From a virus: a DNA stretch of 35,548 bases. The notes under the pieces are model-generated. The model was not told the origin of the DNA. It saw nothing but the letters and a program-made list of their open reading frames with translations, and did not search any database. Numbering within the stretch: position 1 is the first letter of the stretch; the number at the start of each line of letters is the position of its first letter. The position numbers were made by a program, and so were the translations under genes. Positions 857 through 21,174 of the stretch are shown one piece after another. The stretch covers positions 1-35,548 of IMG/VR virus record IMGVR_UViG_3300037094_000013; one strand, 5' to 3'.

Positions 857-879
857 AAAGGCCCCGAAATGGGGCCTTT
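857..879. terminator. Bidirectional intrinsic terminator
   Basis: AAAGGCCCC (857-865) pairs perfectly with GGGGCCTTT (871-879) around a 5-nt loop, with A-rich and T-rich sides. It begins 2 nt after the stop of the virion gene and lies 16 nt from the end of groES, so it can end both converging transcripts. Confidence 0.9.
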
Positions 880-895
880 AACTTTTACCGTGCGT

Positions 896-1183
896 CTATT
901 GGTAAGCGACTATATCTTCAGCGTGAAGTGAGTAGTATGTCTTACCATTAATATTGAACTTCGTAGTTGTGTGTTCATTGAACAGAACATACATGTCAAC
1001 TTTGATTTCCATTGGGACACGAACTCCATCTTCCCATCTACCAGGTCCAACCTTGAGAACCTTTCCTTCGCTTGGTTTGTCGTCTTGGGAAATCCCCTTG
1101 ATAATCTTACCAACCGTTTCGGGTTTAATTCCCTCCACTAACACAAGGTCGTCTAGAACCTTAAGCTTGTTTATTTGCAACAT
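896..1183 (-). CDS. groES: Co-chaperonin GroES
   Basis: This 95-residue protein has the normal GroES length (95-97). The start is ATG 1183, because the longer in-frame extension overlaps the upstream gene in a non-homologous way. Signature parts are VLVEG near residue 12, a mobile-loop-like stretch with an Ile-Ile pair (KIIKG), VGPGRWEDG, and a C-terminal strand ending in EDIVAYQ that matches the GroES roof/base region. It forms the heptameric lid of GroEL and would assist folding of phage proteins such as capsid or tail subunits. It is the last gene of the leftward operon and overlaps the 63-aa gene by 23 nt. Order is groEL, small ORF, groES, the reverse of bacterial groESL. Confidence 0.9.
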   Translation of the reverse strand: MLQINKLKVLDDLVLVEGIKPETVGKIIKGISQDDKPSEGKVLKVGPGRWEDGVRVPMEIKVDMYVLFNEHTTTKFNINGKTYYSLHAEDIVAYQ

Positions 1184-1352
1184 TGGTATCTTTCTTGAGA
1201 GCCAGTCGCACCGACGGTACATCAAACAGTTCACCACGATGCATGTACGGTTGCAAGACTGTATCAGTTTCCAATAATACCTCATTAACCTTCTCTACCG
1301 CAGCCTTAAGCTTCTTCTGGTCAGGTGTCAATTCTTTTTCTTTCTTAGCCAT
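1161..1352 (-). CDS. Hypothetical 63-aa charged protein between groEL and groES
   Basis: Starts MAKKEKELT and is rich in Lys and Glu, with a helical N-terminal half (DQKKLKAAVEKVNEVLLE). It begins 5 nt after the groEL stop and runs 23 nt into groES, so translation is likely coupled. I recognise no family. Its place inside a chaperonin operon makes a chaperonin-linked role possible, but that is inference only. Its ATG follows an AT-rich leader with an AATAAT stretch and no Shine-Dalgarno, like many genes here. Confidence 0.65.
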   Translation of the reverse strand: MAKKEKELTPDQKKLKAAVEKVNEVLLETDTVLQPYMHRGELFDVPSVRLALKKDTNVANKQA

Positions 1353-1357
1353 ATATA

Positions 1358-2902
1358 TTATTTTTTATCTTTGTTGTCCTCTTCGGGAGTATTTAAAACA
1401 AATGTCCCGATACTTGTTAATATAGTTGCGACAGCTACTGCATTACGCAATGCCATCTCTACTGCCTTAAAGGGTTCGACCACTCCACTTTCCAAAAGGT
1501 TTTCGTACTCATCGGTTGCAGCATTATAACCGATAGTTTTTGTCAATTTGGAGGGGATCACTTTATGTTGAGCGTTCTTTGCAATCTGTCGTACAGATGC
1601 TTCTGCCAACATATGAGCAACACTATCTGCTATCTCGTTATCTTTATAGTCACTGGCATCATAGGCATTGTACATTGACAATCCTCCACCAATCAAATAA
1701 CCAAAGAGCATTGAGGCTCGAACAGCATTAACTGCATCCTCATAACGATAGACCTTTTCACGAGCTTCTCGTTCTGTAGCGCCACCAATTTTGAGAGTAA
1801 CAATACCGTTTGTAAGGGATGCGAGACGAGCCTTTACCTTAGAATCATTCTTATCCTTATCAAGCTCTTCCTTAAGATAAGCAATTCGTTCTTTTAATTC
1901 AGGTGAGTTGTGTTGGTTAGTGAAGAGGATCTTTTGGGGGTCTGCAGATACGCTGGCAGCACGCACGAAATCATCACGACTAATACTATCCACCCGCCTT
2001 CCACTAGACTCAGAAATAACACTCGTTCCCAGGTAAACTGCAAGATCTTCCAAAGCCAAATCATCGCTGAGCTTAGCAAGAACAAGTCCCATAGTCCCAC
2101 GAGCGTGATTAGCAATAAAGGTATTAGGAGCATCGCCCAAGAAGTCCTTAGCAACGATGCACATTTCCTTGAAACCAAGATCCATACCGACTTGCAGTAT
2201 GTGTTCAGCCTCTTCAGCATAGTAAAGTGTCTTATCAAATATAATAACTGGTATCTCCTTATAGGCCATCGTGGGACGGGCAACATCTGAATACAGGTTC
2301 TGGAACTTCATCCCCTCACCTATTCTGAATCCCTCCTGCTTCTCAAGACGAGTCTCCGCGTTGGGATTAAGTTCAAGATAAACCATCCCGTTGAGTCCCG
2401 CTGTAGTTATAGTAGTCAGGACATTCTTTGCAATTTCCACATCCCCACCAGCCGAGATTGTAGCAACCTCTAGCTTTGTCTTATCAGACTTAACCTCTTT
2501 CTTATTCTTCTCAAGGCGCGAGAGAAGTTTATTCAATACATCACCAAAAGTTTCTTTGATGTCATATTGAGACATACCAGAATCCCGCAACTCCATTGCT
2601 TTCTTGATGAGGGCATGGCTATACAAGACGGTTGTTGAGGTTCCATCTCCAGCCTCTGCATTAGTGCGAAGTGAACCATCTTTAATGATATCAACTACTG
2701 CATGTTCAATAGGATCATCAAGTTGAATACCACGAATAATTGTGATACCATCGTTGGTCAGTTCAAAGTTACCCTTATCGGATTCATAGAGAACATTCTT
2801 TCCACGCGGGCCGATAGTTTCTATAACGGGAAGGCTCACCTTTTCGACTGCCTTGATGATCTGATCCCTAACATCCTTCTCTTGATAAAGTGTCTTACTC
2901 AT
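1358..2902 (-). CDS. groEL: Phage-encoded chaperonin GroEL
   Basis: 514 residues, somewhat shorter than the usual 540-550 and without the C-terminal GGM repeat tail. The equatorial ATP site is intact: NDG with Asp51, AGDGTST at 84-90 with Asp86, and YEDAV with Asp389, equivalent to Asp52, Asp87 and Asp398 of Escherichia coli GroEL. The late GGATEREAREK and YNAATDEYENLL stretches match the hinge and lower equatorial regions. The apical domain (roughly 185-365) is the most divergent part, as expected if it is tuned to phage substrates. The start overlaps the end of the NinG-like gene by 8 nt. With the downstream groES this is a complete phage chaperonin pair, presumably ATPase-active. Confidence 0.95.
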   Translation of the reverse strand: MSKTLYQEKDVRDQIIKAVEKVSLPVIETIGPRGKNVLYESDKGNFELTNDGITIIRGIQLDDPIEHAVVDIIKDGSLRTNAEAGDGTSTTVLYSHALIKKAMELRDSGMSQYDIKETFGDVLNKLLSRLEKNKKEVKSDKTKLEVATISAGGDVEIAKNVLTTITTAGLNGMVYLELNPNAETRLEKQEGFRIGEGMKFQNLYSDVARPTMAYKEIPVIIFDKTLYYAEEAEHILQVGMDLGFKEMCIVAKDFLGDAPNTFIANHARGTMGLVLAKLSDDLALEDLAVYLGTSVISESSGRRVDSISRDDFVRAASVSADPQKILFTNQHNSPELKERIAYLKEELDKDKNDSKVKARLASLTNGIVTLKIGGATEREAREKVYRYEDAVNAVRASMLFGYLIGGGLSMYNAYDASDYKDNEIADSVAHMLAEASVRQIAKNAQHKVIPSKLTKTIGYNAATDEYENLLESGVVEPFKAVEMALRNAVAVATILTSIGTFVLNTPEEDNKDKK

Positions 2903-3623
2903 GGTTATTTTCTTGTTCTTTTACTAATTCTGAATAATGTTTAATTAAATCCTCCAGTTCACTAACTTGCCATTTCTTAATACTATTTCCTCTATGAACT
3001 AATTTCTCAAACTCCTCCTTACCATACTTTGATATAAGTCTTACTGCGTATTCTCCTACGTTTCCTGACTTAAACAGATTGCAGGATGGACATTGTGCAT
3101 TGCAGTTCATTTCATCCCATCTTGTTGCTTTGTTGGCCCTACCGATAAAATGTCCATTGTGCATCATTTGTCCAGTTCCCTTAGCTCCACAGGTGAAGCA
3201 AGTCCACGAGTCTCTATTACGGATAAACCTAGAGAAAACTGAATCAAGTTTGATTATTGCCCGTCTTAAACTGCGAGGCTTATTTTTTGCGAATTTGGTC
3301 TTCTTGGGACGCACACTTCTTTCGTGCTTAGTACGACTAAAGTGTCCCTTAAACCTCATCCTATCACGACATTTAATACTACAAGTCTCTCTATACCTAT
3401 CCCTCTGTTGTGACTTACTTACATAAAATTCTTTATTGCAATGTCTACATATCATTGGCTTGTTTGTCATTAGAGATAATGAAAAACATTTCTTTGAGCA
3501 GAAGTGGTGGGCTGACCTTTTGACCAGTGCCTGTCGTAAGTACTTTTCCTTTCCACATTGCTGACAAATTATTATCTGGCCATTTCGTGGTTTCCACCCA
3601 TTGCTTTTCATTAAATCTACCAT
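2895..3623 (-). CDS. NinG/Rap-like HNH-type recombination nuclease
   Basis: 242 residues. The C-terminal half resembles lambda NinG (Rap): CFTCG, then HNGHFIGRANKATRWDE, NCNAQCPSCN and SGNVGEYAVRLI, a treble-clef zinc fold with HNH-like residues. The N-terminal half adds two further CxxC/CSxKC zinc knuckles (ICQQCGK with FCSKKC; CRHCNK with CSIKC) and a basic linker (RSVRPKKTKFAKNKPR). NinG proteins act in phage recombination as branched-DNA endonucleases; that role here is inferred from the family. It sits 1 nt after the metallopeptidase gene and overlaps groEL. A plain HNH nuclease is the alternative. The start could be ATG 3623 or 3611. Confidence 0.75.
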   Translation of the reverse strand: MVDLMKSNGWKPRNGQIIICQQCGKEKYLRQALVKRSAHHFCSKKCFSLSLMTNKPMICRHCNKEFYVSKSQQRDRYRETCSIKCRDRMRFKGHFSRTKHERSVRPKKTKFAKNKPRSLRRAIIKLDSVFSRFIRNRDSWTCFTCGAKGTGQMMHNGHFIGRANKATRWDEMNCNAQCPSCNLFKSGNVGEYAVRLISKYGKEEFEKLVHRGNSIKKWQVSELEDLIKHYSELVKEQENNHE

Positions 3624-4225: not shown

Positions 4226-4969
4226 TTATTTTATATCTATTCTTTTACCCGTTGACCAACCACCGCAAGACTGACAATGAAATCTATGATACTTGTGTTT
4301 GCGTGTAACACTAGTTCCTCTGGCTTGAAGCTTATCGGAACCACATATCGGACATGCCTCAGGTCGCCCGACGAGTACACCGATAGGTGGATGATTTGTA
4401 GCCCACGGTCGGAGTCGCATGTATACTTCATAGAGTAGATCTACGTCATGTTTATTATATTTCACCATTGTCTTCCAGGACTTTGGGTCCCCACTCATGC
4501 AACCTAGCCATGTATCCTTTCCTTCGTGTGGAAGCTTACGTCCTATATCTAGGTAGCGGCAAAGATCATCCAACTTATTACTATCAAATCGAAACTTAGT
4601 CCTAGCAAGTTTAAGAGTGTCAACAGTTTTAAAAGGAGATGGGGGAGGTAACTTATGTACCAAGAAACGCGCGTTAGATTTCTTGACATCGAAAGCGTCA
4701 GCATTGTGAGCAACCACCACGTCAGCACCATCAAGGATATTCCAAAGGTCTTTAATAAGAAGATAGTCATTTGTTTTGTCTTTCTTATACCCCTTATAAT
4801 CTGGGAGTGCGTAAGCCTTAGTGGGCCCATCATTTATCTTTACCGCAAAGGAAAGCATGTACCAATCACGATACACTTCTATGATGTTTGTCTCCCATAC
4901 GCCCCAGGAATAACCCAATTGCGGCGCGGTTTCGATGTCCAAGTAGACTATGTTTATATTTTCTGCCAT
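4226..4969 (-). CDS. DEDD-family 3'-5' exonuclease with C-terminal zinc ribbon
   Basis: 247 residues from ATG 4969. RNase H-like exonuclease motifs are in order: YLDIETA with Asp11 and Glu13, VVAHNADAFD at 85-94, and YNKHDV with Asp175, the typical DnaQ/YprB-like acidic set. The tail carries a zinc ribbon with CPIC (206-209) and CQSC (232-235). This phage family is linked to replication or recombination processing of DNA 3' ends; substrate preference is not deducible here. It is the first gene after the promoter at 5165-5193 and the folded RNA at 4983-5150. The start was chosen because ten extra upstream codons would reach to within 13 nt of that fold. Confidence 0.8.
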   Translation of the reverse strand: MAENINIVYLDIETAPQLGYSWGVWETNIIEVYRDWYMLSFAVKINDGPTKAYALPDYKGYKKDKTNDYLLIKDLWNILDGADVVVAHNADAFDVKKSNARFLVHKLPPPSPFKTVDTLKLARTKFRFDSNKLDDLCRYLDIGRKLPHEGKDTWLGCMSGDPKSWKTMVKYNKHDVDLLYEVYMRLRPWATNHPPIGVLVGRPEACPICGSDKLQARGTSVTRKHKYHRFHCQSCGGWSTGKRIDIK

Positions 4970-4982
4970 GTTAATGTTATTA

Positions 4983-5150
4983 TTTAAGTGGGGAGCCAAA
5001 GGTAAAGTTTTACAGCTGATAAACCTTTGGATAGATGTGAATACTAATTTTAATCTAGTTGCATCCGTGCCACTACTAAGTCCTTTAGGAACCTTTCATG
5101 CACCTTAGCGCCGTATTCAAGGGCACTTATTCAGTCACTCCCCACTTAAA
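4983..5150 (-). ncRNA. Multibranched structured RNA or 5' leader (about 168 nt)
   Basis: On the minus strand a perfect 13-bp helix joins 5138-5150 with 4983-4995 (TTTAAGTGGGGAG and its complement). Inside are three consecutive hairpins: GTGCC 5122-5126 with GGCAC 5067-5071, holding CTAAG/CTTAG and a TCC-TAAA-GGA tip; GATG 5062-5065 with CATC 5034-5037; and CCAAAGGT with ACCTTTGG (4996-5003 with 5023-5030). All nest without conflict, giving a four-way junction. A strong promoter places the transcript start about 7 nt before the outer helix, and the exonuclease ATG follows 13 nt after it. It could be a riboswitch-like leader or a processed RNA; I match it to no known family. Confidence 0.6.
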
Positions 5151-5164
5151 GAACGACTGAATGA

Positions 5165-5193
5165 AGTATAGCAAATCGAATGGCTTAAGTCAA
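5165..5193 (-). promoter_or_regulatory. Sigma70-type promoter TTGACT-N17-TATACT
   Basis: Read on the minus strand: -35 TTGACT (5188-5193), a 17-bp spacer, and -10 TATACT (5165-5170). The predicted start is near 5157, just before the outer helix of the folded RNA. The same -35 and -10 hexamers with the same spacer occur at 28378-28406. It would drive the exonuclease-to-GroES part of the operon. Confidence 0.75.
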
Positions 5194-14786: not shown

Positions 14787-14805
14787 AATTTTAATTTATT
14801 GCACA

Positions 14806-14826
14806 TGGTGGGTACTGCCCCCACCA
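14806..14826 (-). promoter_or_regulatory. GC-rich hairpin in the leader of the leftward operon
   Basis: TGGTGGG (14806-14812) pairs with CCCACCA (14820-14826) around a 7-nt loop, 20 nt upstream of the first ATG of the operon. No T-run follows on either strand, so it is more likely a leader or RNA-stability hairpin than a terminator. Confidence 0.45.
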
Positions 14827-14892
14827 ATTCCCCTACTAATTCGTGGTTGCGGCCACTAAGAATGGGCGGTTGACTCTAGCCTGATGTGCTAT

Positions 14893-14907
14893 GTGGCGGC
14901 TCGCCAC
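14893..14907 (-). other. Hairpin just after the tRNA 3' end
   Basis: GTGGCG (14893-14898) pairs with CGCCAC (14902-14907) around a 3-nt loop, 5 nt from the tRNA 3' end on the minus strand. It lacks a U-tract and may mark a processing point or weak terminator. Confidence 0.4.
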
Positions 14908-14912
14908 CTATA

Positions 14913-14981
14913 TTACGGGGATGGGATCGAACCACCGCTAGCGAGTTTCAAGTCGCCGTGCCCGCTTACACTAACCCGTAA
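14913..14981 (-). tRNA. tRNA-like gene, probable anticodon UGA, eight-nt anticodon loop
   Basis: On the minus strand the 7-bp acceptor stem is TTACGGG/CCCGTAA, the D arm GTG-TAAGCGGG-CAC, and the T arm GGTGG-TTCGATC-CCATC with the canonical TTCGA loop. The anticodon stem GGCGA/TCGCT leaves an 8-nt loop CTTGAAAC (14945-14952). With U33 in its normal place the anticodon is TGA (14948-14950), which would read serine UCA, but there is no long variable arm as serine tRNAs have. At 69 nt it is short, and CCA is not encoded. The identity is therefore uncertain; it could be a decoy, frameshift or degenerate tRNA. Confidence 0.7.
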
Positions 14982-15000
14982 CTTTGAGGGGCTTTGATGG

Positions 15001-16380
15001 ACGGACAGCCCTCACACCGTTTAGAAAATCCCCCAGCGACATAGTAGCCTATGATATGTTGCCTTTAGGCACTATCAGAATATAATCGGTGGCTACACAG
15101 TAGCGCGATATATCTCATGAATAGCGGCGAAACAGGATTAAGTTCCGACTGGGGGATACGCAAGAAATTGCGGTATCTTGCGGGGTAGATGTCACAAGCC
15201 CTCATGGACAATGTGGCCTACGATCTGATAGTAGGACGTACACACGGTGTATTCCTAAGATCAGTCTTTCTAGGGGCCATAGCCCCTTGACTGGTGCGTC
15301 CTTAGCGATGTATATATCGAATACACCTCAAATGGGATAGCACAAGCCGAGGATAGGACAACAAGTTTATAACTTGTCGTATAGCGGCGATTTTTGGGTT
15401 TCATTAAGCTACACCATACGGCACACCCTGTGTATGAAAAGGGCTTTGTATATGTAGCACCGCTATGTGATGGTCTAAAAACCGCGCCTTCTTCCGTATA
15501 TGGGAAGTCGTAGATTTTGGCGCGGTTTCTAAACCACCACCATTTTTCTGTACCGTGTTGTGCGAGTGATGTCTACCTGTTGGCATTTGTCTACGGATCG
15601 GGCGTGGATAAATTATCCCGCTTCTAGGCCGCTAGCTGGCGACTAAGTTCGCCTATAGATCATCCTAAGCCAGTATCGCTTTGGTCACAAATGGGCCTAA
15701 CTCCATCGCAGTTTGATCCGCGAAGTCTAGCAAACTATTACCTACGCTACAACAATCACGCACTTTGAAAACAATTAAGGGCACGATTGCTACTTAGCAC
15801 TTGCACTCATGGTAGATACAGCCGTTAGGGATGTATCACACGCACAGCACAGTACAGAACATGTGAAAGATCATTACTGGGAACATTCTACTCCCCACCC
15901 CCACTTGCTGTCAAGCGATTATTGTGTCCGAGTATGCGTAAGCCCCAGTGAAGTAGTAATTTAGCGATTCCTCTATACAGAGCTTGCGAGAGCTACAAGA
16001 CACTACGCAAACACGGCCAAACATATTGCGAAAGATTGCACGATAGTATCCCGATTTAACGTGTAAGATTTTCATAGGCCAAGTACCATTTTAAGCTGTT
16101 TAATGGCTGACTCCCTTGTCCGTCCGTAGACACCCACCGATCCACGCTTAGCACACCACCAGCCAGCATGTTCACCGCTTAAAACTTTATATGTGTACAT
16201 AACACATTAGTTTAGTTTGTAAACTTTACACCGTTACGACTTAGGTGTAACATAAGGATAGCAAGTAGATACACGCAGTCAACTATGCACACTTGCATAA
16301 CTGTGTTGTATTGCAAAAAGTCATTCTGCACGATAAAAAACACTTGCGGTCAAGTAGGTACATGTGATAGTCTTATACGC
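15001..16380 (+). ncRNA. Candidate giant structured RNA region (about 1.4 kb, no convincing gene)
   Basis: There are no packed reading frames here, but many stable helices. Examples: CCCCAG 15031-15036 with CTGGGG 15149-15154; CATAG/CTATG 15040-15053; a GATAC-GCAA stem capped by a GAAA tetraloop (15155-15177); AGGACG 15232-15237 with CGTCCT 15297-15302 enclosing two hairpins; ACAAGTT/AACTTGT 15361-15377; a 10-bp helix AAACCGCGCC/GGCGCGGTTT (15479-15488 with 15519-15528); GGATAA/TTATCC; GATACA/TGTATC; and TTACACC/GGTGTAA near 16226-16250. Place beside a phage tRNA and size recall the GOLLD and ROOL giant RNAs of phages. The GAAA loop favours the plus strand. Limits and strand are not fixed, and I identified no family consensus. 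Confidence 0.5.
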
Positions 16381-16383
16381 AGG

Positions 16384-16394
16384 AAAGGAGGTGA
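16384..16394 (+). promoter_or_regulatory. Near-perfect Shine-Dalgarno
   Basis: AAAGGAGGTGA is complementary to almost the entire 16S rRNA anti-SD tail, 5 nt before the ATG at 16400. It decides that start and contrasts with the AT-rich, SD-free starts of most other genes in the window. Confidence 0.8.
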
Positions 16395-16399
16395 TTTAG

Positions 16400-16576
16400 A
16401 TGCTTCTAAAATGTGATTGGTGCGGGATCAAGTTCGCCAACGCACCGGTGCATTACGCTCATAGGCATTTTTGCCGTGAGACATGCAAAATGGATTGGGT
16501 CGAGACTCAAACCAGAATAGCGGAAGCGCAAAGACAAGAACACGCATACAAGAACCAAGTGCGGCGAACACAGTAA
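16400..16576 (+). CDS. 58-aa zinc-knuckle protein with strong ribosome binding site
   Basis: Starts MLLKCDWCG and has CDWC (5-8) and CRETC (25-29), a treble-clef/FCS-like zinc knuckle, then a long charged helix (WVETQTRIAEAQRQEHAYKN). Family unknown; it may be an RNA- or protein-binding adaptor. The SD is exceptionally strong, suggesting high expression. It sits directly after the structured region and before the hairpin and leader of the amidoligase gene. Confidence 0.7.
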   Translation: MLLKCDWCGIKFANAPVHYAHRHFCRETCKMDWVETQTRIAEAQRQEHAYKNQVRRTQ

Positions 16577-16584
16577 TGGCTTTA

Positions 16585-16608
16585 GGGAGTGTGCCTTAAA
16601 ACACTCCC
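16585..16608 (+). terminator. Hairpin after the zinc-knuckle gene (weak terminator or processing site)
   Basis: GGGAGTGT (16585-16592) pairs with ACACTCCC (16601-16608) 8 nt after the stop of the 58-aa gene. There is no U-tract, so it may only slow or protect the transcript. Confidence 0.4.
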
Positions 16609-16631
16609 ACCAATTATAAATTTATTATTTA

Positions 16632-16702
16632 GGTGGGGGGCAACAAAAACCACACATGATCCGCAGTATTGGGCGCACCCATACGGGATAATCCCCCCAC
16701 CC
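16632..16702 (+). promoter_or_regulatory. Structured leader of the amidoligase operon
   Basis: GGTGGGGGG (16632-16640) pairs over 9 bp with CCCCCCACC (16694-16702), enclosing a second helix built from ATCC/GGAT, GTA/TAC and TGGG-CGCA-CCCA. The fold ends 24 nt before the amidoligase ATG (16727), whose immediate leader is A-rich (AAATAAAACAAACAAT). A riboswitch or translational control element is possible; no known class is recognised. Confidence 0.5.
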
Positions 16703-16726
16703 AAGTAATCAAATAAAACAAACAAT

Positions 16727-18295
16727 ATGCCTAACGCACCACAAAATAACCAACCCACACAGGCACAGCAAAATATGGAGCAACTGCGTAGGGGTTTGTT
16801 AGAAGACTTTGTACCAGATCGTCATTTGATAGGATGTGATCGTTGCGGTGGGGTAATAGAAGAAAATGCACAGAGAGTTGAGGGGATGTTTGGCTTTAGG
16901 ATTCTTTGTGCGCCGTGCTTCATTGAGCTAACAAGAAACCAAGAAGTTTTTGAGCCTCATGATAAAAAAAAGCCCAAGCCTAAGTTTGAACAAGGCACGA
17001 TCATCAAGTCGGATCGCCAGTTTGGACTAGAGTTTGAAGTGAACCTAGACCTTGCTGGGCAACATACACTACGCGACCTTGTGGCCCGTGATTTTAACCT
17101 AGTTCACGATGGTAGCGTAAACGCTGGTATAGAGGTAGTTTCTCCCATACTTTGCGGTAAGACAGGCGAAGACAAGATAAAAGCCATGTGTTCCTCACTA
17201 CAAAAGGTAAAGGCTGGCGCAGATGATAGCTGTGGACTTCATGTTCACATTGACGCCGCAGATTATTTTGAGAACACAAGAATAGATCTCACCACCCTTT
17301 CGGTGATCGGTAAAATAAGAGACTGTAGAATATACGTTTTGGACGCCACCCTACAAAAGACAATGCGCGAGGATAACTACGGGCTATGGGAGGCTGTCTA
17401 TTCTAACGGATCGCTAGATCAATTCACGGTCAACGAGTTTCTGGATTATATGCAAAGTGGAAAGTCCGTAGCAAACCTACCCGTTGTGTGGGCAGATGAT
17501 GGAAAAGTTGCAGAAACTTTTATACAATTCTACACGCCGATTGGATCGCGTGGTGCAAGAATTAAAAACAACGACAGTATAAAGACGGAGGCAGACATTA
17601 AAAAATATCACGGTGAACCATCCCTTGTCACGTTCGGATATTCCAAGTTTGTTGTCATAGACAGGGAGACTTCTAATAATCTTTATTGTGTTTGTGTACC
17701 TAAGTCTTATAGCAAGGGAGATAAGGATCGCCTAGATAGAATTAAGCGCGTGGCCTCATTCTATATCGCATTTGATGACGTGCTTGCCGCGATGTTGCCA
17801 TGTGATAGACGCGACAATGACTTTGCGATCCGTGCGTCAACGCGCATGTCCATACGAGACGTATCGGTTTGCGCTTCTATCCTTGACTTTTTCAACGCAT
17901 GGACAAAGACAAAGGACTTGCGTGGATTCAGACTGTCAATGGGAGAACAACGACACGAAAGCCGATACTATGGGATCAATTTTAGGGCATTATTAAAACA
18001 CGGCACTATCGAGATTCGATATCACGCAGGTACTACAGACGCCGACAAAGCTCTCCACTGGACTGCTCTACATCAGCGTATTGTGGACATCGCCGCAGAC
18101 CTAAAAGACCCCCGCTTTAACCTTGACAGATTGGAAAAGGCAGACATGGTTATCGAAATAGATCGTAAGGCAGACCTATTTTTCGCCAAGCTAAACCTAC
18201 CAAGCGATACAGAGACATACTTGCGTAAGCGCATATCTGAGTATTCTGGTGAGGATTCACATTTTGTTGAAAGTTTAATCGCAGACGATAAATAA
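16727..18295 (+). CDS. Amidoligase-family enzyme (PF12224-like) with N-terminal zinc knuckle
   Basis: 522 residues. A zinc knuckle (CDRC 37-40; CAPC 61-64) precedes an amidoligase core of the glutamine-synthetase-like COOH-NH2 ligase superfamily: FGLEFEVN (99-106), HDGS (127-130), GIEVVSP (134-140), CGLHVHID (169-176) and later GTIEIRYHAGTTDADKA. Family members are predicted to make amide bonds between carboxylates and amines using ATP. It is the first gene of an operon with a glutamine amidotransferase, a second amidoligase and a gamma-glutamylcyclotransferase, so a peptide- or cell-wall-modifying pathway is likely. The exact substrate cannot be read from sequence. Confidence 0.8.
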   Translation: MPNAPQNNQPTQAQQNMEQLRRGLLEDFVPDRHLIGCDRCGGVIEENAQRVEGMFGFRILCAPCFIELTRNQEVFEPHDKKKPKPKFEQGTIIKSDRQFGLEFEVNLDLAGQHTLRDLVARDFNLVHDGSVNAGIEVVSPILCGKTGEDKIKAMCSSLQKVKAGADDSCGLHVHIDAADYFENTRIDLTTLSVIGKIRDCRIYVLDATLQKTMREDNYGLWEAVYSNGSLDQFTVNEFLDYMQSGKSVANLPVVWADDGKVAETFIQFYTPIGSRGARIKNNDSIKTEADIKKYHGEPSLVTFGYSKFVVIDRETSNNLYCVCVPKSYSKGDKDRLDRIKRVASFYIAFDDVLAAMLPCDRRDNDFAIRASTRMSIRDVSVCASILDFFNAWTKTKDLRGFRLSMGEQRHESRYYGINFRALLKHGTIEIRYHAGTTDADKALHWTALHQRIVDIAADLKDPRFNLDRLEKADMVIEIDRKADLFFAKLNLPSDTETYLRKRISEYSGEDSHFVESLIADDK

Positions 18296-18301
18296 TAATT
18301 T

Positions 18302-19750
18302 ATGTGTGGTATCTTATGGGTAGATAGTAAACGTGGTATGAGTGCTGTAAAGCCACTAATAAAGCGATACCGAAAACAGGATCATCGCGGAAAGTCGGGA
18401 TATGGTTACGTTGCGGTAGATGCCAACGGATTCGTTGGTGAGATACACCGCAGTACAGACGAAGACGGGATCATGGAGGCACTTGCAAGTGAACAGTCTA
18501 GTAAGATTCTGTTTCATCATCGCTCCCCCACAAGTCTACCTAACTATGTGGGCGCAACCCACCCATTCAAGATCAGTAAGGACGATTTTGATTTTGATTA
18601 TTACATCGTACATAACGGCGTGATCGCTAATGCAGAGTTTCTTTTTGGTGAATACAAAAAGGCTGGTATAAAGTTCATGTCCGAAATGGCAGAGGGAAAA
18701 TACCATGAGTTTGTCAACACCGACGAATACTACGAGGACTTGGAAACTAAAACAAAGGTAAACGATAGCGAGGTTTTTGCAGTTGACATGGCCGCATTTA
18801 TCGAGGGAAAGCAAACGTGGGTAAAGTCGGCGGGCACCATCGCTTTCATTGGCCTACAAGTATTCAAGAATGGTAAGGACGCTGGCAAGGTCAACTCCCT
18901 ATTTTGGGGACGAAATAATGGCAATCCTGTATGCCTAGAAGAAGACAATGTTTTGTTCACATTGTCAAGCGAAGCTGGTGGAAAAGAAGTAGACGCTGAC
19001 AAAATATATTTCAAAAACTGGCAGACAGGCGAGATCACCACCAAACAAGCCAACGGTATTGCTTATCATGGATTCTCTACAAATGCAAGCGGAATCAAAA
19101 ATGTACATAAGACTAAAGCCGAAAGAAAGGCAGAACGTTGCGCCGCGCGTAAGGCTGGCCAGTCCAACGGCCTACCCGAAGATGCTGTTATACTCTATGA
19201 TGGTGGCCCTAACGAGCCAGAACCAGACCCCGAAATTGACGACGCCGTTGCAAGAATGACGGGCACAAGGATAGAGTCACACCCCTCATTTGATTGGATA
19301 GAAACCCTTAAAGCAACGCAAGATCAAGACGTAAACTTAAAGACCATGTGGGGACTTCTACCCACAAAGTCTAAATTACTTGCCGCAGGTGCCGCAGAGC
19401 AAGTAGAGGATATGACGCTTATTGACATCGGCATTGACCTTAACGCAATAGACAATGAGATCGAAGCGGCAGACATGGGGCGTGGTGACGCAGACGCAGG
19501 GCTGTTGCGACAATTGCGCGACGATTTACAGGATGATCTTGATAGTGAAAATGACGCACTAAGGGAGTTGCGATCTGCACAAGAATTGTTGCGTGAGGCC
19601 GTACAAGCAAAGCCATTCATTCTTAAAGACAGTGAAGAAGCAAAAGCCATGGTGGACGCCGCAAGCTCACAGTGGGGCGAGGCACACAACGCCCGTATTG
19701 CTACATGTGCCGAACTAGAAGCTCACATGGGTGCCTATGGTGGATGGTGA
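18302..19750 (+). CDS. Class II glutamine amidotransferase
   Basis: 482 residues. The N-terminal Ntn-hydrolase domain is diagnostic: MCGILWVD with catalytic Cys2 (exposed after Met removal), FHHRSPTS (71-78), ATHPF (85-89) and VHNGVIAN (103-110). The domain would hydrolyse glutamine to supply ammonia. The C-terminal 200 residues are acidic and coiled-coil-like (RQLRDDLQDDLDSENDALRE) with no synthetase domain, so ammonia would be delivered to a partner, probably the amidoligases beside it. It starts 6 nt after the first amidoligase and overlaps the 110-aa gene. Confidence 0.85.
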   Translation: MCGILWVDSKRGMSAVKPLIKRYRKQDHRGKSGYGYVAVDANGFVGEIHRSTDEDGIMEALASEQSSKILFHHRSPTSLPNYVGATHPFKISKDDFDFDYYIVHNGVIANAEFLFGEYKKAGIKFMSEMAEGKYHEFVNTDEYYEDLETKTKVNDSEVFAVDMAAFIEGKQTWVKSAGTIAFIGLQVFKNGKDAGKVNSLFWGRNNGNPVCLEEDNVLFTLSSEAGGKEVDADKIYFKNWQTGEITTKQANGIAYHGFSTNASGIKNVHKTKAERKAERCAARKAGQSNGLPEDAVILYDGGPNEPEPDPEIDDAVARMTGTRIESHPSFDWIETLKATQDQDVNLKTMWGLLPTKSKLLAAGAAEQVEDMTLIDIGIDLNAIDNEIEAADMGRGDADAGLLRQLRDDLQDDLDSENDALRELRSAQELLREAVQAKPFILKDSEEAKAMVDAASSQWGEAHNARIATCAELEAHMGAYGGW

Positions 19751-20069
19751 ATGGGTAAAAACAGGTAAGGTATGGATCAAGATTTATCCCACAAAAAAGA
19801 AAGATATGCTCTCTAAAAGCGTCCCCGTAGCAATACAATTTAACCTAGAGTGCGAGAACGGACGCAAGGCACAGCGTGTAGTCCCGTTGCGGGGTAGGGA
19901 TGTTGACACTTGCTTATATCGTGTTAGCCGACAAATCGTAGAAGCCAGCGATCTTGTTAGCAAAAATATGTGGATCGAGGAACACAAAGTAATTTACGAC
20001 TTGCCATTACCAGACGAGATGAAATTATTAGACGTGCCAGAACGGAGTGTGAATTATAAATTAAGTTGA
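19737..20069 (+). CDS. Hypothetical 110-aa protein in the amidoligase operon
   Basis: ATG 19737 lies in the last codons of the amidotransferase gene (14-nt overlap); a GTG at 19731 is possible. It begins MVDGEWVKTGKVWIKIYP, contains alternating hydrophobic strands (VPVAIQFNLEC; RKAQRVVPLRG) and a helix (RVSRQIVEASDLV). No catalytic motif or family is recognised. Tight packing between pathway enzymes suggests a partner or regulatory subunit. Confidence 0.65.
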   Translation: MVDGEWVKTGKVWIKIYPTKKKDMLSKSVPVAIQFNLECENGRKAQRVVPLRGRDVDTCLYRVSRQIVEASDLVSKNMWIEEHKVIYDLPLPDEMKLLDVPERSVNYKLS

Positions 20070-20073
20070 CGCC

Positions 20074-21174
20074 ATGAACGCCTTAACATACTACAGCATT
20101 TCGATGGGGTGTGATCCAGAGTTTTTCTTTAGCAAGGATGGTAAAATCGTTGGTAGTGAAAAGCTGATACCCAAAGAAGGGAAAGTATTGTTTAACAAGG
20201 GTGACAGCACAATGGGAACACACGCGCTCACTTCCGATTCAGTTGCCGGAAAGATCATCATAGATGGTGTGCAAGCCGAACTGAACCCGCGCCCACACTC
20301 ATGCCGTGCAACATTGGGAAATGAGATCGCGTGGTGTTTCCGTAAGATCAAGAATGAGTTATTGAAAGACGGCAATACCATAGATTTCTCACAAGCCGTT
20401 GAAGTCTCTAAGGAGGAGATGGATAGCCTTAGTGCGTCGTCTAAGCGTTTTGGATGTTCGCCATCACACAATGCCTACGCAGAGGATGGCAATAGTAAAA
20501 TCACCGTCAATCCGTTAGTCTATCGTACCCGTGCGGCAGGTGGGCATATTCATCTTGGCCCGAACCCATCCGACACGCTAGAGACGCAACGCAAGATCAA
20601 GGATGCACTTGACAATCATAAGATTATAGTGCCTATTCTAGACTTGATTGTAGGCAATACTTGTGTTCTGGTAGACAGGAACCCGTCAAACATAGAGCGA
20701 CGCAAGGTATATGGCAAGGCAGGTGAATACCGTACCCCAAAATACGGGCTGGAATACCGCACCTTGTCTAACTTCTGGCTAACATCATACCCACTGTTTG
20801 GAATGGCCTTTGGGCTTGCTAGGCTCGCGGTAAATATCGTTGCAAACGATACAGAGGACTTTTCCTACTCTAAAGCATTATTGGAAAAGGTGCGTATGCG
20901 CGATGTTGTTAAAGCGATCAACGAAAATGACTTCGACCTTGCGTTGAAAAACTTTAACGCGATAAAGCCGTTGCTCATAGAAATGGTGGGTGTTGGAGGC
21001 CATCATCCCATTACAACGGGAAACATCGCATATTTTGAACACTTTATCACTAAGCCCATGTCCTATTGGTTTAAGGAAAACCCCCTAGACCATTGGATCG
21101 GACTTGGCGATGGTCATGCTGGGGGATTCGAGGACTTTCTAGCAAAGGTCGTTTCTAAGGACATGGTAAAGTAG
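20074..21174 (+). CDS. phiEco32-type COOH-NH2 ligase (amidoligase type 2)
   Basis: 366 residues. It shows the family's sequence landmarks in order: MGCDPEFFF (11-19), DGVQAELNPRP (64-74), AAGGHIHLGP (154-163) and GLEYRTLSNFW (225-235), with acid and His residues that would bind ATP-metal as in glutamine-synthetase-like ligases. This is the family first described in phage phiEco32 and predicted to form amide links. It is distinct from the amidoligase at 16727, so the cluster has two ligases of the superfamily. It lies 4 nt after the 110-aa gene and 1 nt before the next gene. Confidence 0.85.
   Translation: MNALTYYSISMGCDPEFFFSKDGKIVGSEKLIPKEGKVLFNKGDSTMGTHALTSDSVAGKIIIDGVQAELNPRPHSCRATLGNEIAWCFRKIKNELLKDGNTIDFSQAVEVSKEEMDSLSASSKRFGCSPSHNAYAEDGNSKITVNPLVYRTRAAGGHIHLGPNPSDTLETQRKIKDALDNHKIIVPILDLIVGNTCVLVDRNPSNIERRKVYGKAGEYRTPKYGLEYRTLSNFWLTSYPLFGMAFGLARLAVNIVANDTEDFSYSKALLEKVRMRDVVKAINENDFDLALKNFNAIKPLLIEMVGVGGHHPITTGNIAYFEHFITKPMSYWFKENPLDHWIGLGDGHAGGFEDFLAKVVSKDMVK

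What the first reader, a model, noticed from the sequence alone, without database searches (positions are those of the whole stretch)
4983..5193. Strong promoter feeding a 168-nt multibranched RNA upstream of an exonuclease
TTGACT-N17-TATACT places the start about 7 nt before a perfect 13-bp closing helix with three nested hairpins, then the exonuclease ATG 13 nt after the fold. Promoter, compact fold and gene are in register on the minus strand. It could be a riboswitch-like control of the recombination-chaperonin part of the operon or an independent structured RNA. I cannot match it to a known class.
Basis: partly seen in the sequence, partly recalled or inferred. Interest (0 to 1): 0.75.

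Follow-up and report, generated by a model that had tools for sequence, protein, structure and literature searches.

The report
Divergent manA-family RNA in a phage
The structured RNA is real and is an unrecognised, far-diverged member of the known but functionally unexplained manA RNA family of marine viruses, made from its own promoter at the head of a phage DNA-processing and chaperonin operon; the wider family looks more like a stand-alone phage RNA gene than a switch for one pathway.

Summary
In detail: TTGACT-N17-TATACT with extended -10, a perfect 13-bp closing helix (5150-5138 with 4995-4983), a compact multibranched fold (-52.5 kcal/mol, z -2.6) and an exonuclease ATG 13 nt further on. 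It is a divergent manA RNA (Rfam RF01745). The Rfam model aligns end to end, but at 20.6 bits, below the family cut-off of 55.2. A covariance model built here from 17 manA-like RNAs without the window finds this RNA, and nothing else in the window, at 36.3 bits (E about 4e-11); sequences that carry the conserved core by chance reach at most 19.3. Across the family the pairs covary strongly (21 of 28 change on both sides; 97% of cells paired against 73% in shuffles). The window copy lacks the 5' hairpin of cyanophage manA and has a longer closing helix. The nearest phage relatives and other homologues of the exonuclease lack it. Family-wide, manA occurs once per phage genome, next to a -10 box, ahead of dozens of unrelated genes, and often before a terminator or tRNA. 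That weighs against a pathway-specific riboswitch and for an autonomous RNA or general leader. Function is unproven.

The parts
5165..5193 (-). sigma-70-type promoter: -35 TTGACT (5193-5188), 17-nt spacer, extended -10 TGC-TATACT (TATACT 5170-5165); predicted start about 5158-5157
   Evidence: sequence; consensus scan; -10-like boxes 14-37 nt upstream of the GGGAG of 97 of 100 cyanophage manA RNAs, 22 nt here
4983..5150 (-). manA-family structured RNA (168 nt from closing helix to closing helix)
   Evidence: Rfam RF01745 full length 1-192, 20.6 bits; independent covariance model R1 36.3 bits, E about 4e-11, sole hit in the window; folding z -2.56
5138..5150 (-). closing helix, 5' strand UUUAAGUGGGGAG
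   Evidence: sequence; the homologous GGGAG/CUCCC helix covaries in the family
4983..4995 (-). closing helix, 3' strand CUCCCCACUUAAA
   Evidence: sequence
5127..5138 (-). conserved core GUGACUGAAUAA
   Evidence: identical to the manA consensus and to the cyanophage RNAs
5108..5126 (-). flush core hairpin GUGCC-CUUGAAUAC-GGCGC
   Evidence: minimum-energy fold; helix 3 of the family, with compensatory pairs in the window row
5101..5107 (-). conserved UAAGGUG after the core hairpin; its GGU pairs with ACU of the core in the family model
4996..5030 (-). terminal hairpin CCAAAGGU...ACCUUUGG, directly before the closing 3' strand
   Evidence: minimum-energy fold; same position as the last hairpin of the family, but with a larger loop and not aligned by model R1
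4226..4969 (-). DNA polymerase exonuclease subunit (phrog_403), first gene after the RNA
2895..3623 (-). NinG-type recombination endonuclease
1358..2902 (-). phage GroEL-type chaperonin
896..1285 (-). phage GroES co-chaperonin
857..879 (-). intrinsic terminator-like hairpin AAAGGCCCC-ATTTC-GGGGCCTTT with T tail, probable end of the transcription unit

Best explanation
This is a divergent manA RNA (the wider family of RF01745). Shown by computation: the fold and its family membership. Inferred from sequence: transcription starts at about 5158 from the extended -10 promoter, so the RNA forms at the very 5' end of a transcript that runs on without a terminator into exonuclease-NinG-GroEL-GroES and ends near 857. 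The conserved GUGACUGAAUAA core, its flush hairpin and UAAGGUG sit just inside a closing helix that seals a multibranched domain. Most likely working (inference, about 0.5): the RNA is an autonomous phage module, one per genome, that works either as a processed stand-alone RNA or as a general 5' leader (protecting the mRNA end or gating expression during infection), not as a sensor dedicated to the genes beside it. A ligand-controlled leader (about 0.3) is the main alternative.
For: The Rfam manA model aligns end to end at this place and strand (E 6e-5 in a one-family search of the genome). Model R1, made without the window, gives 36.3 bits, E 4.1e-11, and no other hit in 35 kb; chance carriers of the core reach at most 19.3 bits. 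In the family alignment 97.1% of cells are paired (shuffles 73.5), 21 of 28 pairs have changes on both sides, and slid controls give 6-11; the window row forms all 12 pairs of helices 1-3. Distance from -10 box to core matches the cyanophage copies. One copy per record: 37 of 37 phage records and 15 of 15 further records. Downstream genes are of about 50 kinds; of 119 copies, 43 have a terminator-like hairpin and 7 a tRNA shortly after.
Against: The Rfam score is below the curated cut-off. The middle of the window RNA (hairpins 2 and 3 and the large loop of the last hairpin) does not align well with relatives, and model R1 did not align the terminal hairpin. 49 of 119 copies have a gene start within 80 nt without terminator or tRNA, as here, which also fits cis regulation. 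No expression data; the promoter is a consensus match only. The conserved core was also the search handle for relatives, so its invariance in the alignment is partly by selection. R1 E-values are rough.
Confidence: 0.72

Rival explanations
1. A ligand-sensing riboswitch (the Weinberg 2010 reading of manA) that controls translation of the exonuclease: the closing helix, 13 nt before the start codon, opens or closes with ligand.
For: The RNA lies directly in the 5' leader with no terminator; manA is listed as cis-regulatory and a probable riboswitch (PMC2864571); 49 of 119 copies sit within 80 nt of a start codon.
Against: About 50 unrelated gene kinds follow the RNA, one copy per genome, terminators, tRNAs or opposite-strand genes follow many copies. 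No alternative structure or expression platform was found here.
Confidence: 0.3
2. An mRNA-end protecting or translation-enhancing leader with no ligand: a sealed fold at +1 that blocks 5'-end-dependent decay and leaves an A/U-rich landing site before a start codon without Shine-Dalgarno.
For: The RNA begins at the predicted start site here and in cyanophages; AAAUAAUAACAUUAAC before the ATG is unpaired in most of its length and has no Shine-Dalgarno match, as for many genes of this genome; highly diverse downstream genes.
Against: The invariant core suggests more than an end-block; terminators directly after many copies would leave nothing to protect.
Confidence: 0.3
3. A chance fold and a chance promoter, not a functional RNA.
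For: A 13-bp helix of this span occurs in about a fifth of whole-window shuffles; promoter-like matches are at the shuffled level.
Against: Full-length homology to a covarying family with an independent model at E 4e-11.
Confidence: 0.02

Closest known systems
manA RNA, Rfam RF01745 (Weinberg et al. 2010, PMC2864571; corrected in Rfam 14.3, PMC7779021)
   Same: GGGAGUGACUGAAUAA, flush hairpin, UAAGGUG, closing helix, total length, -10 box immediately upstream, one copy per genome
   Different: 20.6 bits against a cut-off of 55.2; no 5' hairpin before the closing helix; closing helix extended to 13 perfect pairs; different inner hairpins; larger last loop; the genome is not recognisably a T4-like cyanophage; downstream gene is a polymerase exonuclease subunit
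manA-like RNAs below the Rfam cut-off in other viral contigs and a Woesebacteria genome (L220, L221, L230, L232, L295)
   Same: same core, covarying closing helix, last hairpin abutting the closing helix
   Different: each from a different genome with different neighbours; by inspection L295, L232, L223 and L230 keep a 5' hairpin, L220 and the window do not
unlisted RNA of Patescibacteria and some phages (L246, L259, L261, L225, L226)
   Same: core GUGACUGAAUAA-hairpin-UAARGUG inside a closing helix; R1 24-34 bits
   Different: 217-230 nt, another inner fold with its own covariation; the three Patescibacteria loci match no Rfam family there even at E 10, the two viral ones none at the cut-off; found by the core pattern, so kinship with manA is likely but not settled

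Membership tests
manA RNA (RF01745) | score at or above Rfam gathering cut-off (55.2 bits) | tested here: not met
   20.6 bits, full length 1-192
manA RNA (RF01745) | statistically significant full-length homology to the family | tested here: met
   R1, built without the window, 36.3 bits, E 4.1e-11; chance core carriers at most 19.3; Rfam model E 6e-5 for the genome
manA RNA (RF01745) | conserved core GGGAGUGACUGAAUAA ... UAAGGUG | tested here: met
   16 of 16 and 7 of 7 identical
manA RNA (RF01745) | closing helix around the core and flush core hairpin, covarying | tested here: met
manA RNA (RF01745) | 5' hairpin before the closing helix | tested here: not met
   no such hairpin in the minimum-energy folds of the expected transcript; the Rfam alignment places it across the -10 box
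manA RNA (RF01745) | inner hairpins with a pseudoknot (marked uncertain by its authors) | tested here: inconclusive
   middle of the window RNA aligns poorly
manA RNA (RF01745) | position in a potential 5' UTR | tested here: met
   exonuclease ATG 13 nt after the closing helix, no terminator between
riboswitch | ligand-dependent structural change that alters expression | not testable with these tools
   needs in-line probing and reporters
any other Rfam family | match to another of 4227 families | tested here: not met
   manA is the only match up to E = 10

The most novel reading that the evidence does not exclude
manA is not a cis-regulatory riboswitch candidate but one branch of a wide superfamily of autonomous, single-copy structured RNAs of phages (and of some Patescibacteria and Chloroflexota) that carry a GUGACUGAAUAA-hairpin-UAARGUG core inside a sealed multibranched fold; the window RNA is a minimal member without the 5' hairpin.
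Probability: 0.45. Interest if true: 0.7.

Novelty: new variant of a known kind. Interest (0 to 1): 0.5.

Why it matters
manA RNAs occur in common ocean phages, were described in 2010, and no function was found for them in the papers held here. A much diverged minimal member in an unrelated phage narrows down which parts are essential (closing helix, core, flush hairpin). The family-wide pattern (one copy, own promoter, unrelated neighbours) suggests that the cis-regulatory label should be tested against an autonomous-RNA reading, in cultured cyanophages where this is directly feasible.

Tried and rejected
Close DNA relatives of the RNA: none in 50,697 phage records; exact closing helix in IMG/VR: none. 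Homologues of the exonuclease and the nearest phage relatives by terminase and chaperonin: model R1 finds no RNA in 22 such loci, and none of 14 related records scores above chance with the Rfam model, so it is not tied to the exonuclease; in two relatives the contig ends inside the exonuclease, or the gene is absent, so absence there is not proven. Rho-independent attenuator: no U tract after the fold. The 8-nt inverted repeat ATTCAGTC/GACTGAAT across the start site, which could compete with the core: such complements occur among 146 loci about as often as chance predicts, dropped. Core match inside a ROOL RNA (L210): no flush hairpin, judged chance. Many of the 66 genome hits of the core pattern are chance matches without a flush hairpin. 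A survey of 60 genomes of the order of L261 found the RNA in L261's genome only, so in Patescibacteria it is sporadic or too diverged for R1. Literature: no experimental work on manA found in the held library.

Full report
What was checked. The region was read on the minus strand. Promoter, 13-bp closing helix, spacing to the start and to the ATG are as described, with four rather than three inner hairpins. The window is a 35.5-kb virus record. The gene after the RNA is a DNA polymerase exonuclease subunit (phrog_403), followed by NinG, GroEL and GroES and a terminator-like hairpin at 879-857.

Statistical weight of the bare observation. The fold is better than dinucleotide shuffles (z -2.56), but a helix of this kind appears in about a fifth of whole-window shuffles and promoter-like matches are not enriched.

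Identification. Rfam at the curated cut-off finds nothing. With a permissive threshold on the region the only match of 4227 families is manA RNA, RF01745, from model position 1 to 192, on the right strand, 20.6 bits, E 0.0018-0.0029. A one-family search of the genome gives E 6e-5; among 15 related records only one other, weak match appears (E 0.05). The alignment shows 16 identical bases GGGAGUGACUGAAUAA, then the hairpin, then UAAGGUG, and CUCCC at the end.

Independent test. About 120 cyanophage-type manA RNAs and a handful of diverged relatives were collected by the core pattern. They carry the same layout: a -10-like box (97 of 100 within one mismatch of TATAAT, 14-37 nt before GGGAG; 22 nt in the window), core, flush hairpin, UAARGUG, inner hairpins, and a last hairpin abutting the closing helix. 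Seventeen of them, without the window, were aligned; RNAalifold keeps 28 pairs, 20 with compensatory changes, and the closing helix is kept in nearly every sequence. A covariance model from them finds the window RNA at 36.3 bits, E 4.1e-11, full length, and nothing else in the window. Because relatives were selected by the core, the proper yardstick is what a chance carrier of the core scores: at most 19.3 bits (L182). With the window and two more relatives added, 97.1% of cells pair, 21 of 28 pairs change on both sides, no shuffle of 500 comes near, and slid structures fall to 41-54%. E-values of R1 are rough because calibration is shortened.

How it differs. The cyanophage RNAs carry a hairpin at the very 5' end, before the closing helix. 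The expected window transcript has no such hairpin and instead lengthens the closing helix to 13 pairs. L220 and L225 also seem to lack it (by inspection). The score under Rfam's threshold explains why the element would not be annotated.

How it probably works. Three family-wide facts bear on this. First, number: one place in each of 37 phage records, among them complete genomes of 170-250 kb, and one in each of 15 further records; a published cyanophage annotation also lists one (PMC9964418). Second, neighbours: about 50 groups of downstream proteins in about 100 loci; judged from their sequences, not by a family search, they include gp32-like ssDNA-binding proteins, transaldolases and Hsp20, and many are small proteins of unknown function. 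In annotated genomes the RNA lies after the major capsid gene in P-HM1, S-SSM5 and P-RSM4, after pstS in P-SSM4 and P-SSM3, after a ferredoxin gene in P-SSM7, after regA in P-SSM2, and in P-TIM68 the next annotated gene is on the opposite strand. Third, ends: 43 of 119 copies have a terminator-like hairpin within 160 nt and 7 a tRNA gene, while 49 run into a gene within 80 nt without either. From general knowledge, riboswitch classes usually track a pathway and often recur in a genome; this RNA does neither. An autonomous RNA, or a general-purpose leader, fits better. The window copy is joined to its mRNA, so here it is at least a leader. All functional statements are inference.

A wider circle. 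The core pattern also found RNAs in Patescibacteria and two viral contigs (L246, L259, L261, L225, L226) that align well with one another and have their own covariation (28 of 62 pairs with changes on both sides among five sequences), match no Rfam family and score 24-34 bits with R1. They were found through the core, so a common origin with manA is likely but not proven. They are sporadic: one of 60 genomes of one order.

Verdict.

Noticed in passing
L246:1539-1769, L259:1952-2181, L261:3350-3575, L225 (-) 3899-3682, L226:1502-1725: An unlisted 217-230-nt structured RNA in Patescibacteria and phages with the manA-like core GUGACUGAAUAA-hairpin-UAARGUG, conserved ACUACUGCRRAGG and 28 pairs with compensatory changes; no Rfam match.
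   Followed up: partly
L112, L114, L120, L124, L154, downstream of manA: A recurring element GACCUAAGAUGCAACU...AGUSGGGCAGAUGGUC, often followed by a T run, lies directly after many cyanophage manA RNAs; it looks like a terminator with a conserved loop.
   Followed up: no
window 14911-14982 (-): ARAGORN reports a tRNA-like gene with a four-base anticodon (tgaa); Rfam finds no tRNA in the window, so it is probably spurious.
   Followed up: no
window 14787-16726: About 1.9 kb between the divergent gene blocks with only short ORFs (60 aa or less), at the turn of the cumulative GC skew, with two imperfect inverted repeats (15467-15540; 16621-16712, the latter just before the amidoligase gene).
   Followed up: no
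window 16727-21174 (+): A cluster of amidoligase (Amidoligase_2), a weak glutamine-amidotransferase-like protein (below cut-off) and a COOH-NH2 ligase ahead of the packaging genes, suggesting peptide or cell-wall modification by the phage.
   Followed up: no
window, most genes: Many genes of this phage have no Shine-Dalgarno match before the start codon, which hints at a host that makes little use of it.
   Followed up: no
L006:524-1838: In the related contig the NinG gene seems split by an intein-like insert with an HNH-type ORF.
   Followed up: no
L296 and L298, about 180 nt after the core: T-arm-like stem-loops (GCGGGUUCGAUUCCCGC; GCAGUUCGAAUCUGC) inside the manA-like RNAs of two Chloroflexota genomes.
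   Followed up: no
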